A DNA stretch of 64,000 bases from positions 1-64,000 of the forward strand of contig JAILQO010000039.1 of assembly GCA_024698925.1 (NCBI GenBank), written 5' to 3'. Positions within the stretch are counted from its first letter, which is position 1. The number at the start of each line of letters is the position of its first letter. Positions 192 through 9,390 of this stretch are shown in pieces. The notes under the pieces are model-generated. The model did no database searches and was not told the origin of the DNA. It was given only the letters and a program-made list of their open reading frames with translations. The stretch is from Bacteroidaceae bacterium (lineage in GTDB: Bacteria; Bacteroidota; Bacteroidia; Bacteroidales; Bacteroidaceae). Both the position numbers and the translations under genes were made by a program.

Positions 192-905
192 TTACTTCAT
201 TCCTCCCAATGCAGCTTCCAAGGCATCAGGAAGTGTTGATGCGAATGGCGATATCACAAATGCAATAAGTATTATCGCAGCTAACGCATATTCTATTTTT
301 CTCTCACCCTTCCACACTGGCACATTCTGCACGTTCACCAGCGCCACTGTCAATGATCCTTCTATCAATGCTATCGGTATGTGAGACACCAGCAGAGTCC
401 TTATCAGTGCTCCGTCAGGTATGCCACCCACTGTCAATTCCACAGCTATCAACCCAACGGCAGCCATTATCGACAGTGCTGCGCCCAAGGCTATTGAAAC
501 ATTCTTGTTTATATATCCTAACCTATTTATAACAAGGCCACCAATGCCTGTTGCCACGACTGCCATGTTCAGTATATTTGCACCCAACTGCAGTGTTCCA
601 CCGTCGTTGAATGCCAAACATTGCACCGTTATCACCAGTGCTACAGACAATATCGCAGCCGGAACGCCCAATATGGTTGCAGCAAATACTGCTCCCAGCA
701 TGTGCCCAGAAAATCCTGCCGGCAGGGCATAGTTCAGTGCCTGCAAGGCAAATACCGCCACCGTCGTCAGCGCGAACTGCCACACTGTCGGTCTCTTCAA
801 CTTATTCTTTTTCAATGTGTAAGCCGCCAGTACTATTGTTCCTGCAGCCACTACTGCTGTTACAGGGCATATAGCCCCATTTAATGATTCTGATGGTAAA
901 TGCAT
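192..905 (-). CDS. cbiM: CbiM/NikM-family Ni/Co-binding membrane protein (orphan S component)
   Basis: Integral membrane protein of 237 residues with about six to seven hydrophobic segments, of the CbiM family (substrate-binding component of energy-coupling-factor transporters for Co2+ or Ni2+). In solved NikM structures the metal is held by the N-terminal amine of Met1, by His2 and by a histidine near residue 67. Here the protein starts Met-His and has His68 in FSGHMLG, so the site looks intact. The requirement for Met1-His2 fixes the start codon. It is the last gene of the operon, 23 bp after the ABC ATPase gene. No CbiN, CbiQ or CbiO is seen next to it and terminators follow at once, so it must work alone, borrow modules from elsewhere, or use the neighbouring ABC genes. 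Cobalt versus nickel cannot be decided from sequence. Confidence 0.88.
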   Translation of the reverse strand: MHLPSESLNGAICPVTAVVAAGTIVLAAYTLKKNKLKRPTVWQFALTTVAVFALQALNYALPAGFSGHMLGAVFAATILGVPAAILSVALVITVQCLAFNDGGTLQLGANILNMAVVATGIGGLVINRLGYINKNVSIALGAALSIMAAVGLIAVELTVGGIPDGALIRTLLVSHIPIALIEGSLTVALVNVQNVPVWKGERKIEYALAAIILIAFVISPFASTLPDALEAALGGMK

Positions 906-928: not shown

Positions 929-1717
929 CTAAATCATATACTCAATATTCGCCTCCTTAATAGAGAAGAGCTTGTTATACACCGCAGCACGATACATACT
1001 AAAGCCGTTAGAGTTTCTATCCCTTGGTCTCTGTATCTTCACCTCGTATATCTTCTGTATCTTGCCTGGATTCGCCTGCATCACAAACACCCTATCAGCC
1101 AGATACACTGCCTCTTCTATATCGTGTGTCACAAATATCACGGTTTTCTTCTGTTCCTTTACTATTGTCAGCAAGTCACCCTGCAGTTTGTTGCGGGTTA
1201 TGGGGTCAAGCGCACCAAACGGCTCGTCCATAAAAAGTATCTCCGGATTCACTGCCAGTCCTCGTGCTATAGCCACACGCTGCTGCTGTCCTCCTGACAA
1301 CTGCGACGGAAACTGCTGTTCCAATCCCTTCAGTCCTACCAGTTCCAGATACTTCTGTGCTGCCTGTTCGCGCTCCTCCCTGCTTATATTCTTGTTCTCC
1401 AGCCCCAGCTCAATGTTCTTCTTCACATTGCGCCACGGCAGCAGTCCATAGTGCTGAAATATGGTGATATACTTTGCCGAAGGCTTCTTTACCTCTTCAC
1501 CATCTATCGACACCGTTCCCTTGGTAGGTTTTTCAAAACCCGCCAACATATTCAGTAGCGTTGATTTTCCGCATCCTGAGAATCCCAGCAGGCATACGAA
1601 CTCACCCTTTTCTACCTCGAAGCTGATATCGTCAAGCACATGTATGGTGCTATCCTTACCCTCAGCATTCCGTCGCTTAAAGTCCTTGCTCACGTTTCTT
1701 ACCTCAATATACGCCAT
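929..1717 (-). CDS. NitT/TauT-type ABC transporter ATP-binding protein
   Basis: Cytoplasmic ATPase of 262 residues that would power the import system encoded by the two genes before it. Visible motifs: Walker A GFSGCGKST (45-53), Q-loop FQHYGLLPW (Gln88), signature LSGGQQQR (140-147), Walker B ILFMDEP (160-166) and switch His198 (VTHD). Sequence and gene order (lipoprotein, permease, ATPase) place it with the TauB/SsuB/NrtD group, whose known substrates are sulfonates, nitrate, bicarbonate, pyrimidine precursors and others. The substrate is not readable from the ATPase. The start overlaps the permease gene by 14 bp, indicating translational coupling. Confidence 0.92.
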   Translation of the reverse strand: MAYIEVRNVSKDFKRRNAEGKDSTIHVLDDISFEVEKGEFVCLLGFSGCGKSTLLNMLAGFEKPTKGTVSIDGEEVKKPSAKYITIFQHYGLLPWRNVKKNIELGLENKNISREEREQAAQKYLELVGLKGLEQQFPSQLSGGQQQRVAIARGLAVNPEILFMDEPFGALDPITRNKLQGDLLTIVKEQKKTVIFVTHDIEEAVYLADRVFVMQANPGKIQKIYEVKIQRPRDRNSNGFSMYRAAVYNKLFSIKEANIEYMI

Positions 1718-2453
1718 AATGTGTCAATACCTTCTTTTCAAATTTACCAATCAGGAAGTCCAGCACAAATCCTATTCCTCCTATCACTATCATCGTTGCC
1801 AGCAGTATGTCAGGTCTCAGGTTGTTCCTCGCATCGATAATCATATATCCCAATCCCGACTGCGTCCCAACCATCTCGCCTGACACCAGGAATATCCATG
1901 CAGACCCCAGTGCTATGTGTAGCGAGTTCGCTATCTGCGGAAATGCTGCCGGCAGTATTATTCCGAACACTGTCTTCAGCCTTGATATGCCATAGTTGCT
2001 TGCCACCTTCAGATATGTTGTGTCCACACTATGCACCCCTCTTGCTGTCGTCAGCAATACTGGAAAAAATCCCGCCAGGAATATTATCACTATCGCCGGA
2101 GCGTCGCCAATGCCTATCAGCAGTACTATGAACGGCATCCATGCCACAGGTGCTATCGGTCTTATCATCTGCACCACAGGGTTGGTCAGCCTGAACAGCA
2201 CGTTTACATTGCCTATCAGCAGTCCCAGCGCTATTCCCGCCACCACAGATATCAAGTAGCCTATGACAAATCTCAGCATGCTCGCTGCTATGCCATCGTA
2301 TAGTGTGCCGTTAGCCACTATCTCGCCAAATGCCTTTGCCACATCCTGCGGAGCGGGAAACAGTGCACTGTCAAAGTCGCCTGCCAGCACCGCCAACTCC
2401 CATAGTGCCAGTGTTACAGCAAATGATGCTATCGTATATATCACCGTCTTCAT
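1704..2453 (-). CDS. NitT/TauT-type ABC transporter permease
   Basis: Inner-membrane permease of 249 residues with about six transmembrane segments, related to TauC/SsuC. The cytoplasmic coupling loop reads GISRLKTVFGIILPAAFPQI, a good match to the EAA motif (G and LP spacing conserved). It shares an ATGA overlap with the binding-lipoprotein gene upstream and overlaps the ATPase gene downstream. It would form the translocation channel for the ligand delivered by the lipoprotein. Isoleucine is often coded by ATA and arginine by AGA/AGG, as in the rest of this operon but not in later genes. Confidence 0.92.
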   Translation of the reverse strand: MKTVIYTIASFAVTLALWELAVLAGDFDSALFPAPQDVAKAFGEIVANGTLYDGIAASMLRFVIGYLISVVAGIALGLLIGNVNVLFRLTNPVVQMIRPIAPVAWMPFIVLLIGIGDAPAIVIIFLAGFFPVLLTTARGVHSVDTTYLKVASNYGISRLKTVFGIILPAAFPQIANSLHIALGSAWIFLVSGEMVGTQSGLGYMIIDARNNLRPDILLATMIVIGGIGFVLDFLIGKFEKKVLTHYGVY

Positions 2454-3343
2454 TTCACAAAATCTTCAAATGTTGGCGGGTTATCTATTATTCCATATTT
2501 CTTCACCTTCTCACTCAGGTCGTCATAAGCCTCTTTCTTTATTTTCAGATTGGCATAGTTTATCCATTGCAGCGACTGCCTCAGCACCTCCTCGCCCTGT
2601 GTAAGCAGTGTCTTTGCCTTGCTCAGTGCCACCTCCTTGTCTGATAGCTCCTTGCCCTGTTTCTCATACAGTGTTATCACCTTGTCTATCAGTGCTTTCT
2701 TCTCCTTGTATGCCTTATCGTTCACCACCAGCCCGCAGCATATACTCTCATGCCACAGCTCATCGCTTCTGTACAGCACCTTACCCTTGCTCGTCAGCAC
2801 TCCGGCAGCACCAAAAGGCTCAGCAACACAGTATCCTGCTATCTGCTTGTTGGCAAGTGCCGACGGCATCTCTGGCGGAGCCATCTCCACCACATTCACA
2901 TCGTCTATGGTCAGTCCGTCCTTTGCCAGTGCCTCCTGCAGCAGTATGTGGTGCGACGAAGCCCTGTGCGGAATAGCAAATGTCTTTCCTTTCAGGTCTT
3001 TAGCACTGTTCACATCCTGTGTCACCACTATCACATTACCATCGGTATGTCCCAGCGCCACCGCCGTCAGCCCTATGCCCTGTGCCTTCGCCTTCATAGC
3101 CAGTTCTATCAGTACCGATGCCGCATCCACACGCCCAGTGTTCAGTGCGTCAAGCAGTTCGGGCCATGAGCCGTACTTCACCAGTTCCACCTTCACTCCG
3201 TCAGCCTTCTCCAGTCCTGCCAGTGGCAGAGCGTGAGTTATGGGCAGATATGCTATCCTCACCACATTCTCATCGTTCTTCTTGCCACATGCAGTCAGCA
3301 GCAGAACTGTCAGTGTTGCAATTATATACAGTCTTGTTTTCAT
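2450..3343 (-). CDS. SsuA/NMT1-like substrate-binding lipoprotein of the ABC importer
   Basis: Lipoprotein of 297 residues: positively charged start, hydrophobic stretch and lipobox LLTAC with Cys19 as the lipidated residue. The mature part resembles the NMT1/SsuA/NrtA periplasmic-binding fold: an opening strand with AYLPITHALPL (about 32-42), an ALNTGRVDAA segment, a SSHH turn and a CVAEPFGA motif in the second lobe. The family binds small anions (sulfonates, nitrate, bicarbonate) or pyrimidine precursors. Histidines in ITHALP and SSHH and the adjacent cysteines in ESICCG could favour a metal or unusual ligand, but that is inference. It is the first gene after the cooS-like gene, 59 bp downstream, so the importer probably feeds that enzyme. 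Confidence 0.88.
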   Translation of the reverse strand: MKTRLYIIATLTVLLLTACGKKNDENVVRIAYLPITHALPLAGLEKADGVKVELVKYGSWPELLDALNTGRVDAASVLIELAMKAKAQGIGLTAVALGHTDGNVIVVTQDVNSAKDLKGKTFAIPHRASSHHILLQEALAKDGLTIDDVNVVEMAPPEMPSALANKQIAGYCVAEPFGAAGVLTSKGKVLYRSDELWHESICCGLVVNDKAYKEKKALIDKVITLYEKQGKELSDKEVALSKAKTLLTQGEEVLRQSLQWINYANLKIKKEAYDDLSEKVKKYGIIDNPPTFEDFVK

Positions 3344-3402: not shown

Positions 3403-5493
3403 CTATTTCCAACCCAGCAGTCGCCTCTTCTCGTTCAGGTCGTCCACCAGTTGCTGTGCCAGTGCCTTGGTGTCCACATTCACAATCATCTCGCTGCCCA
3501 GTATCGGCTTTGTGCCGTGTGCCATAAACTCGTGCACATTGGGTGCTCCCTGCGTAGGTGCATATACACTGTGATATGAGTTCATTCCTAACAGCCTGAA
3601 TGCCAGCGCTGCACAGATGCCCTTCTCATTGCTCCACTCAGGCGACATGAAGGCATACGGCAGTTCCTTTATCGGTATGCCAAATGCTCCACTGATACCG
3701 TTGAAGAATCCGCTGGCTCTGGCGTTGTCCAGGCACTCGCCCAGGTGCCACACAGGCGGAATGTTCCCGTGCTCCTCGCAAAATTGTCTCAGGCTGTCTC
3801 CTGTTACGGCAAGCGCCTTGGTTGAGCAGAACCCCAGCTTCAGCAGTGCAAACGAAGCACATCCGTTAGTCAGTATCAGTATATTGTTCTTCAGCAGTAT
3901 CTCTGCCGCCTCCACTATATGCTTCTCGTATATCAGTCGTGGGTTGTTACATCCCACAAGGTTCACTATGCCTCGTATCCTGCCCTCTCTCAGCGCATCG
4001 GCAAGGTCTCTCAGGCCTCGTTCAAAGTGTCCTGTTGCCCACTCCACCGAGAAGCCCATCTCCGCCTCCACCTCATACTGTGGTATCTTCACTGGTACAT
4101 CGCGGCGGTCTTTGAACGCCTCTATAGCCCTTTCCACTATTCGCCTTGCCAGGTTCTTTATGTCGCCAATGTTCGAGTGCTCATGGTCAAAGCCATAGTG
4201 CTCAGCGCCAGGCAGTCGTGCCGAGTCGCTGGTGGTCACCACTACGGTGCGGAAGCATCGCGCCACATCCATTATCGTTGGGAATACATCCTGCACATCT
4301 GCCACCCATAGGTCTAGTGCTCCTGTGCCCAACACCAGTTCCGAACCCACTGCATTGCTCAGCGGTATCACTCCGCCATAGCGGTACATCGCGCTCAGTC
4401 CTGAGCAACAGATGCCATAGAACTGTATGCCCTCAGCGCCTGCCTCGCGTGCCTTGCCCTGATATTCGTCGCTCTGTCCTATCTTCACTATTTCGCGTAT
4501 CAGCAGCGGCGAGTGTCCGTGTACTGCAATGTTCACCCATCCCTTTTTCAGTGCTCCGAGGTTCACCTTTGACGTAGAGCGGTGCGGCAGCCCATACAGG
4601 CAGTCCATTGCTATTCCGCTGCCCAGGCATGATGTCCATGCAAAGCTCACTCCTGTGCGCAGAAACTGCTGCATCACATTGCGCCAGTCGCCGTCGGTGC
4701 CTGTTGTGGTGCGGTGCAGGCTCTCAAACACCTCGTGGTATGGCGATATGGGTATAATGCCAGCCTTCTCCCATGCCTCTATCCTCTCTTTTGGTGCATG
4801 GCTGTATATGGTCTTGTGCTTACCTGGCACCGTTCTGCTGAGGTCCTCCAGCAGTATGTCGGCTATCTCGCCCGCAAGCTGTCTTATGTCCTTGCCCTCG
4901 GTGTCCAGTCCGTATGTCTTTGCCTCAGCCAGTATCTTCTTCTCACCCTCTATGTCTATAGGCGCCTTGCCCTCCGCGGCATATTTCAGTGCCACCATGC
5001 TTGCCCTGCCTCGTGCTCCGTGGCTGGCTGTTCCTGCGGCAAGGTGCCTCAGCAGGTTACGGGCTGCTATGAGGTCAGCATCGGCACCACACACGCCGCG
5101 AGGTGCTTTCTTCGTTATCCTGCATGGACCCATGAAGCAGTTCTTGCAACAGGTGCCTGCAATACCGAAGTTACACTGTGGCTGCTGACTGTCAAAGCGG
5201 TCAAACACCGTCTCTATGCCCATATCCTGCAGGTGCAGCAGCATCTCCCTCACAGCAGGGTCAGGCGTCTGCTCTATCTGTTGCTGCTTATTGGGAAATG
5301 TCTTGCGATATTCGTTTACAGCCGACATATAATCCTTAGTATCTCCGTGCACATGAGGGTGCTCGGGATCATGATGGTGGTGGGCATGCGACCGCTGATG
5401 GGCTATAATCTCCTCATCGCTTCGCTTGCCTGAGAACACCTCCTCAAACTGTTCGTTGAGGTCATGATGGTGCTGATGATGTTGTTCTGCCAT
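3403..5493 (-). CDS. Non-canonical CooS-like (carbon monoxide dehydrogenase scaffold) protein with His-rich N-terminus
   Basis: 696 residues with the Ni-CODH catalytic-subunit fold. Cys107 and Cys115 match the D-cluster ligands. Cys116, Cys119, Cys124 and Cys135 match the B-cluster. For the C-cluster, His325/His327 (AVHGHSP), Cys362/Cys363 (GICCSG), Cys515 (VGCN), Cys545 (NGCA), Cys587 (LGEC) and catalytic Lys624 are present. However, the position of Cys333 of the C. hydrogenoformans enzyme (motif DYQCIQPS) is Asp402 here (DVQDVFPT). Of the four-histidine proton relay only His158 remains, and the others align with Arg161, Ala164 and Val167. A His-rich stretch (13 of the first 49 residues) precedes the conserved domain. 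Known enzymes lacking one C-cluster cysteine (CooS-V) hold an Fe-S-O hybrid cluster and do not oxidise CO. No CooF, CooC or acetyl-CoA synthase gene is nearby. It has its own promoter, and codon use differs from the rest of the window. True CO chemistry is doubtful. Confidence 0.85.
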   Translation of the reverse strand: MAEQHHQHHHDLNEQFEEVFSGKRSDEEIIAHQRSHAHHHHDPEHPHVHGDTKDYMSAVNEYRKTFPNKQQQIEQTPDPAVREMLLHLQDMGIETVFDRFDSQQPQCNFGIAGTCCKNCFMGPCRITKKAPRGVCGADADLIAARNLLRHLAAGTASHGARGRASMVALKYAAEGKAPIDIEGEKKILAEAKTYGLDTEGKDIRQLAGEIADILLEDLSRTVPGKHKTIYSHAPKERIEAWEKAGIIPISPYHEVFESLHRTTTGTDGDWRNVMQQFLRTGVSFAWTSCLGSGIAMDCLYGLPHRSTSKVNLGALKKGWVNIAVHGHSPLLIREIVKIGQSDEYQGKAREAGAEGIQFYGICCSGLSAMYRYGGVIPLSNAVGSELVLGTGALDLWVADVQDVFPTIMDVARCFRTVVVTTSDSARLPGAEHYGFDHEHSNIGDIKNLARRIVERAIEAFKDRRDVPVKIPQYEVEAEMGFSVEWATGHFERGLRDLADALREGRIRGIVNLVGCNNPRLIYEKHIVEAAEILLKNNILILTNGCASFALLKLGFCSTKALAVTGDSLRQFCEEHGNIPPVWHLGECLDNARASGFFNGISGAFGIPIKELPYAFMSPEWSNEKGICAALAFRLLGMNSYHSVYAPTQGAPNVHEFMAHGTKPILGSEMIVNVDTKALAQQLVDDLNEKRRLLGWK

Positions 5494-9317: not shown

Positions 9318-9390
9318 AGCGATAGACGGGACTCGAACCCGCGACCCTCGGCTTGGGAAGCCAATGCTCTACCAACTGAGCTACTATCGC
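9318..9390 (-). tRNA. tRNA-Gly (anticodon CCC)
   Basis: On the minus strand: 7-bp acceptor stem GCGATAG/CTATCGC, D-arm AGCTCAGTTGGTAGAGC, anticodon stem TTGGC/GCCGA with loop TTCCCAA giving anticodon CCC, and T-arm with the TTCGAGT loop. The discriminator base is T, as usual for glycine. No 3' CCA is encoded. It decodes GGG. rarA begins 8 bases later on the same strand. Confidence 0.95.

What the first reader, a model, noticed from the sequence alone, without database searches (positions are those of the whole stretch)
3403..5493. CooS-like enzyme with Asp in place of a C-cluster cysteine and a lost proton relay
All D- and B-cluster cysteines and five of the six C-cluster ligand positions are present, plus the catalytic Lys624. 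The position of Cys333 (C. hydrogenoformans CODH-II numbering) is Asp402, and the His96/His99/His102 positions align with Arg161, Ala164 and Val167. Deviant CODHs lacking one C-cluster cysteine are known (CooS-V): they carry an Fe-S-O hybrid cluster, do not turn over CO and slowly reduce hydroxylamine. The sequence suggests a related but not necessarily identical chemistry in a Prevotella-like bacterium. The alignment is from memory.
Basis: partly seen in the sequence, partly recalled or inferred. Interest (0 to 1): 0.82.

Follow-up and report, generated by a model that had tools for sequence, protein, structure and literature searches.

The report
Altered CODH relative with sulphur links
A gut-type bacterium carries a known but uncharacterised relative of carbon monoxide dehydrogenase in which one cluster-binding cysteine is an aspartate; its neighbouring genes in other microbes hint that it may help cells obtain sulphur.

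Summary
In detail: window 3403-5493 (-) encodes a 696-aa CooS-type protein with Asp402 at the C-cluster Cys333 position, and the other cluster cysteines, His327 and Lys624 in place. The comparison offered does not hold: CooS-V changes the FIRST C-cluster cysteine (to Glu), this protein the SECOND. It matches clade B, group B-1 of Inoue et al. 2019 (Asp/Glu at Cys2, His-rich N-terminus, NitT/TauT ABC transporter), function unknown. The 'lost proton relay' is over-read.

New here: the CODH-ABC cassette recurs in many phyla. Sulphur-assimilation genes lie nearby in 21 of 112 loci against 4 of 60 controls. Two of 46 scanned loci have a SAM riboswitch before the CODH gene; Megasphaera has T-box-cysE-cysK-CODH. 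In nine of nine CODH-less plasmid loci examined, relatives of the transporter sit with an acyl-CoA-dehydrogenase-like protein instead. Nickel-uptake or nickel-cofactor genes also recur. My best reading is a nickel enzyme of anaerobic sulphur acquisition; the reaction is not shown. Most loci have no sulphur neighbour, the window's included, and the gene families tested were chosen after seeing them, so the link is suggestive. The rival, nickel import for an ordinary CODH, stays open.

The parts
3403..5493 (-). CooS-type CODH homologue, 696 aa, clade B / group B-1 features
   Evidence: PMC6344411 Table 2
5344..5493 (-). His-rich N-terminus (codons 1-50); 15 His before the D-cluster region
   Evidence: at least 4 His in 106 of 112 relatives against 0 of 20 other-clade CODHs
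4288..4290 (-). Asp402 codon (GAT) at the Cys333 position
2450..3343 (-). SsuA/NMT1-type substrate-binding lipoprotein, 60 bp downstream of the CODH gene
   Evidence: PF13379 106.8 bits; closest solved structure 3un6, E 7.7e-58
2735..2740 (-). Cys202-Cys203 codons of the binding protein, conserved with His37, His99 and His131 (possible metal- or thiol-binding pocket)
   Evidence: 66-sequence alignment: H37 1.0, H99 1.0, H131 0.92, C202 and C203 0.98; the same residues in 3un6
1704..2453 (-). NitT/TauT-type ABC permease
   Evidence: PF00528
929..1717 (-). NitT/TauT-type ABC ATPase
   Evidence: PF00005; ntrCD subfamily 256.7 bits, below its cut-off
192..905 (-). CbiM-type S component of a Ni/Co ECF transporter, last gene before the contig start; only CbiM match in this genome
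   Evidence: PF01891 120.5 bits

Best explanation
A clade B (B-1) CODH homologue that probably holds a nickel-iron-sulphur C-cluster with one Asp-ligated iron, made together with its own ABC importer and, in this genome, a Ni/Co uptake component. I think it works in anaerobic sulphur acquisition: the importer brings in a sulphur-containing compound and the CODH-like enzyme reductively releases sulphide or a thiol from it, which O-acetylhomoserine or O-acetylserine sulphydrylases then fix. Shown here: the sequence features, the conserved cassette, the neighbour counts, two SAM riboswitches and a T-box. Inferred: that the cluster forms, that it holds Ni, that the imported compound contains sulphur, and the reaction itself.
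For: Cassette: all three ABC genes found with the CODH gene in 56 of 78 named loci, at least one in 69. Sulphur genes (CGS/MetY, CysK, CysE, MalY type) in 21 of 112 B-1 loci against 4 of 60 control regions; within 2 kb of the cassette 20 genes in 403 kb against 14 in 992 kb further out. SAM riboswitch 206-211 bp upstream of the CODH start in L071 and L109; T-box-cysE-cysK-CODH in L086. MetY 145 bp upstream in Prevotellaceae L036. Nine of nine CODH-less plasmid loci examined pair the ABC family with an acyl-CoA-dehydrogenase-family protein; pANL adds CysK. A TauABC-like operon of S. aureus, probably the one holding the 3un6 protein (my inference), is in the CymR cysteine regulon and sulphide-repressed (PMC5480029, passages). 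Own genome: no NIR_SIR match, two O-acetylhomoserine sulphydrylase matches. Nickel side: CbiM, LarB, LarC or LarE in 11 of 112 against 1 of 60.
Against: 91 of 112 B-1 loci have no sulphur gene in the stretch fetched, and none was recognised beside the window's operon. SAM riboswitches lie before the CODH gene in only 2 of 46 loci scanned and in none of the listed matches of 27 more B-1 genomes (list cut). The families were chosen after seeing them near B-1 loci and relatives are not independent, so p-values (0.024, 2.6e-4) are optimistic. Siroheme genes are not enriched (3 of 112 against 1 of 60). None of 16 Veillonellales loci (L134-L149) has the binding protein nearby. Nothing shows the substrate.
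Confidence: 0.38

Rival explanations
1. Nickel import for a Ni-CODH (the published hypothesis of Inoue et al. 2019): the ABC transporter imports Ni2+, the His-rich end stores or inserts it, and the enzyme interconverts CO and CO2, perhaps slowly or at a shifted potential because of the Asp ligand.
For: His-rich end in 106 of 112; CbiM in the window operon and Ni genes in 11 of 112 loci; conserved His/Cys in the binding protein; acid-base His and Lys kept. Proposed in PMC6344411, Discussion part 1.
Against: The ABC family also occurs without CODH, with a flavoenzyme-family protein, in nine plasmid loci, and a related operon is under a cysteine regulator (PMC5480029, passages). Nickel uptake would not call for SAM-riboswitch or T-box control.
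Confidence: 0.32
2. CO oxidation supplies low-potential electrons to sulphide-forming or other reductases, so the link with sulphur genes is indirect.
For: D- and B-cluster cysteines complete (110 of 112, 2 gaps); siroheme genes upstream in L114, L119 and L124.
Against: No siroheme reductase match in the window's genome (85% complete); siroheme genes not enriched; the dedicated importer is unexplained.
Confidence: 0.12
3. Hybrid-cluster-like enzyme that reduces hydroxylamine or NO.
For: Distant matches to hybrid-cluster families; loss of one C-cluster Cys.
Against: The HCP-like group D-1 has Glu at the first Cys and Glu two residues before the Lys (PMC6344411); here both Cys of the pair are kept in 112 of 112 and position 622 is Asn in 112 of 112.
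Confidence: 0.07

Closest known systems
Ni-CODH clade B, structural group B-1 (Inoue et al. 2019, PMC6344411)
   Same: Asp at the second C-cluster Cys, type II D-cluster, acid-base His and Lys, His-rich N-terminus, NitT/TauT ABC neighbour
   Different: No difference found in the features tabled there; placement on a tree with its reference accessions was not done. The sulphur neighbourhood is not described in the sections I read.
CooS-V (C. hydrogenoformans), group D-1
   Same: CODH fold (PDB entries 7b9a and 7b7q match the model); one C-cluster Cys missing
   Different: CooS-V: first Cys to Glu, type III D-cluster, Tyr for the acid-base His (PMC6344411 Table 2). Here: second Cys to Asp, type II, His kept.
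Hybrid cluster protein (1e2u, 1e1d)
   Same: Distant homology, residues 474-657, E 1e-4
   Different: No Glu at the Cys1 position and no Glu two residues before Lys624.
S. aureus substrate-binding protein 3un6
   Same: Closest solved relative of the window's binding protein (E 7.7e-58); conserved His and Cys residues
   Different: From S. aureus (named in PMC6344411), which as I recall has no CODH; substrate unknown.
Methylthio-alkane reductase (nitrogenase-like; recalled, not tested)
   Same: A metal-cluster enzyme recruited for anaerobic sulphur scavenging would be a parallel
   Different: Unrelated protein family; L118 has a nitrogenase-like gene pair upstream of the cassette, relation unknown.

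Membership tests
Clade B group B-1 CODH | Asp or Glu at the second Cys of the C-cluster | tested here: met
   Asp402; D 108 and E 4 of 112 relatives
Clade B group B-1 CODH | Type II D-cluster, Cys-(X)7-13-Cys-Cys | tested here: met
   C107-x7-C115-C116
Clade B group B-1 CODH | N-terminal His-rich region | tested here: met
   15 His before the D-cluster region
Clade B group B-1 CODH | Acid-base His and Lys present | tested here: met
   H158 and K624
Clade B group B-1 CODH | NitT/TauT-family ABC transporter in the context | tested here: met
   window 929-3343
Clade B group B-1 CODH | Position among the reference sequences of clade B | not tested
   reference accessions were not fetched; in a tree with 20 other-clade CODHs the window protein and 112 relatives form one group (the printed support of that re-rooted node, 0.057, is not relied on)
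CooS-V / group D-1 | Glu at the first C-cluster Cys | tested here: not met
   C362-C363
CooS-V / group D-1 | Type III D-cluster and Tyr at the acid-base His | tested here: not met
   type II; H158
Hybrid cluster protein | Glu two residues before the Lys | tested here: not met
   Asn622
Canonical Ni-CODH | All six C-cluster ligands (His and five Cys) | tested here: not met
   Cys333 position is Asp
Canonical Ni-CODH | Ni-dependent CO oxidation | not testable with these tools
   needs purified protein

The most novel reading that the evidence does not exclude
B-1 'CODHs' are not CO enzymes but nickel-dependent reductive desulphurases: the C-cluster, altered by one Asp ligand, breaks a carbon-sulphur bond of an imported compound under anoxia, replacing the flavoprotein that goes with the same transporter family in aerobes.
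Probability: 0.22. Interest if true: 0.88.

Novelty: new member of a known kind. Interest (0 to 1): 0.55.

Why it matters
B-1 CODHs are common: match at B-1 level in 18 of 392 Lachnospirales, 19 of 61 Veillonellales and 11 of 225 Clostridiales genomes, and gut surveys count clade B among CO-using genes (PMC11338639). If they work on sulphur compounds, many gut genomes listed as potential CO users are not, and the C-cluster would gain a new chemistry. The SAM riboswitch, the T-box operon and the transporter give simple tests.

Tried and rejected
CooS-V and hybrid-cluster kinship: rejected on the ligand positions. Proton-relay loss as a marker: rejected because controls lack two of the three His as well. 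Model: AlphaFold2 mean pLDDT 76.4, pTM 0.74, CODH fold by Foldseek, but no coordinates were available, so the direction of Asp402 was not measured. Rfam on the window: one tRNA only. The binding protein in class Bacilli: 2 of 395 genomes, one of them the genome of L111 that I had chosen as centre, so staphylococcal neighbours were not seen. Literature: no held paper found for CODH with CooS-V and hydroxylamine; CODH with S-box gave one paper, whose passages concern nickel and S-box separately; the last search listed 20 of 55 papers, titles and starts of abstracts only, none on this link by title. This does not show absence from print.

Full report
What is there. Window 3403-5493 (-) is an intact 696-codon gene for a CooS-type protein (TIGR01702 486.7 bits, cut-off 478). 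It is followed on the same strand by a substrate-binding lipoprotein (60 bp gap), a permease (4 bp overlap), an ATPase (14 bp overlap) and a CbiM-type ECF component (23 bp gap), which ends 192 bp from the contig start. It is the only prismane/CODH-family match and the CbiM the only CbiM match in a genome rated 85% complete. Nearest named locus: Prevotellaceae bacterium UBA7017, 95%. Within the family, 4 of 301 genomes searched have a match at this level (the window's own, G023, G285 and G216), so the gene is patchy.

The residue. Asp402 takes the place of Cys333. D is found in 121 of 121 aligned sequences (120 listed of 3079 hits) and D or E in 112 of 112 relatives, against Cys in 20 of 20 other-clade CODHs from Clostridiales. 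Among the 225 Clostridiales genomes the B-1 matches score 880 to 1008 bits and the next 417. The other cluster ligands and the acid-base pair are kept. Arg at the His96 position is real but holds for 43 of 112 only.

Known kind. Inoue et al. 2019 (PMC6344411; Results parts 1-2 of 3 and Discussion part 1 of 2 read) define group B-1 by these marks and note the NitT/TauT transporter, similar to the S. aureus protein 3UN6. They propose that the transporter imports metal ions such as Ni and that the His-rich region inserts them. CooS-V is in their group D-1 and differs at the decisive positions. Katayama et al. 2024 (PMC11338639; abstract, two Results sections and passages) count 493 clade B genes among 1380 in gut genomes and report ABC-transporter and, in Megasphaera, cysteine-synthase contexts; they call the ABC function in CO metabolism unknown. 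'Methionine' and 'riboswitch' do not occur in its main text, 'sulfur' once.

The cassette. I fetched 80 named loci (the best 80 of 386; the two search patterns favour this group). 78 gave a CODH gene with my ORF finder; L046 and L085 did not and were dropped. All three ABC genes pass my thresholds beside it in 56 of 78, in the order CODH-SBP-permease-ATPase in 49 and SBP-permease-ATPase-CODH in 7; 9 of 78 have none, some of them on short contigs. Hosts include Bacteroidales, Lentisphaerae, Clostridia, Selenomonas, Fibrobacteria, a spirochaete, proteobacterial bins, a Synergistaceae bin and a Methanosarcina (titles).

Sulphur. Three duplicate earlier loci (L130, L132, L137) and were dropped, giving 112 loci. 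Controls are 20 other-clade CODH loci and 40 arbitrary regions of B-1 genomes. Genes like CGS/MetY, CysK, CysE or MalY occur in 21 of 112 B-1 loci and 4 of 60 controls (1 of 20 and 3 of 40), Fisher one-sided p 0.024; one positive control, L186, lies on the contig of a B-1 CODH. Within 2 kb of the cassette there are 20 such genes in 403 kb, further out 14 in 992 kb, ratio 3.5, p 2.6e-4; 13 loci. The query genes came from B-1 neighbourhoods and relatives are not independent (three of the 13 loci, L086, L095 and L141, share one Megasphaera-type arrangement), so these values are optimistic. Curated matches: MetY-type 145 bp upstream in Prevotellaceae L036 (606 bits, cut-off 495) and downstream in Lachnospirales L119 (616 bits); CysK in L086 (435 bits, cut-off 351). 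MetQ-like genes (5 of 112 against 0 of 60) and siroheme genes (3 of 112 against 1 of 60) are not significant; the MetQ-like query was named by eye.

Control elements. Rfam at gathering level on 46 B-1 loci (8, 8, 10, 11 and 9): SAM riboswitches end 211 and 206 bp upstream of the CODH start in L071 (89.5 bits) and L109 (68.5 bits). A T-box (109.9 bits, threshold 93) precedes cysE-cysK-CODH in L086; near-identical leaders precede cysE in L095 and L141. L091 has a SAM riboswitch before a methionine-type ABC operon (named by eye) about 4 kb before the cassette. In L060 a T-box on the opposite strand precedes a cystathionine-lyase-like gene. Nineteen B-1 genomes carry 78 SAM riboswitches above cut-off in about 66 Mb. 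By my arithmetic 0.014 would fall within 500 bp upstream on the right strand in 46 loci by chance; counting only operon starts (I assume about 1500 per genome) gives about 0.12. In 27 further B-1 genomes none of the listed matches lies near the CODH (list cut).

The same transporter family without CODH. tblastn of the binding protein against plasmids gave 23 records, one with CODH (Ruminococcus albus 7). I looked at 9 loci from the other 22 (Synechococcus, Bartonella, Methylocystis, Agrobacterium, Variovorax, Burkholderia, Paraburkholderia, Roseomonas, Deinococcus): 9 of 9 have an acyl-CoA-dehydrogenase-family protein in the cluster, 6 of 9 also a carboxymuconolactone-decarboxylase-family protein. 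ORFs of the B-1 loci gave no match to that protein at E 1e-10; one other-clade control did. NCBIfam hits of four of these proteins include SfnB 'sulfur acquisition oxidoreductase' in three, all far below its cut-off. The pANL cluster also holds CysK; that its genes respond to sulphur is recalled. His99, His131, Cys202 and Cys203 are shared with the four such binding proteins aligned; His37 is Asp there. Identity is only 31-38%, so the substrate may differ. In S. aureus a TauABC-like operon (NWMN_0115-0119) is in the CymR regulon and repressed by sulphide (PMC5480029, passages); that it holds the 3un6 protein is my inference.

Nickel. CbiM, LarB, LarC or LarE occur in 11 of 112 B-1 loci and 1 of 60 controls, p 0.038; LarE, LarB and LarC of L098 pass NCBIfam cut-offs. 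The own genome has no NiFe-hydrogenase match, so the CODH homologue is a candidate user of the metal taken up through CbiM; urease was not searched.

Mechanism. From established knowledge (recalled): Cys333 binds one iron of the [3Fe-4S] part of the C-cluster, not Ni or the pendant iron, and Asp can bind iron in Fe-S clusters, often more loosely. So a Ni-holding cluster remains plausible. The sulphur reading adds that the own genome lacks a siroheme sulphite/nitrite reductase match but has two O-acetylhomoserine sulphydrylase matches above cut-off, so it can use sulphide that must come from elsewhere. The step from imported compound to sulphide is inference.

Verdict. The enzyme is a new member of a known, uncharacterised group. 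The wider point, that this group may serve sulphur acquisition, I did not find in the papers seen and rate at about 0.38; the specific desulphurase reading at 0.22.

Noticed in passing
L034 6836-7887, also at L035-L038, L040 and L069 in whole or part: In Prevotellaceae relatives a small ECF-like membrane protein (below its Pfam cut-off; related gene in 7 loci) and an FmdE-domain protein (related gene in 6 loci) lie in the same run of genes as the cassette, where the window has CbiM.
   Followed up: partly
L118 13246-16578: A nitrogenase-like D/K-type gene pair (below nif cut-offs) lies upstream of the binding-protein-ABC-CODH genes, with a cystine-type binding protein downstream.
   Followed up: partly
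L169 (G537, Clostridiales): An other-clade CODH homologue with Met-Asp in place of the Cys-Cys pair and Tyr at the His93 position.
   Followed up: no
L134-L149: Veillonellales B-1 CODHs stand without the binding protein nearby; in L139 a LysR-type regulator gene lies upstream, weakly similar to several families.
   Followed up: partly
L173: Ruminococcus albus 7 carries the complete cassette on a plasmid typed as conjugative, a possible route for its patchy spread.
   Followed up: no
window 9318-9390: A tRNA gene on the - strand, the only Rfam match in the window.
   Followed up: no
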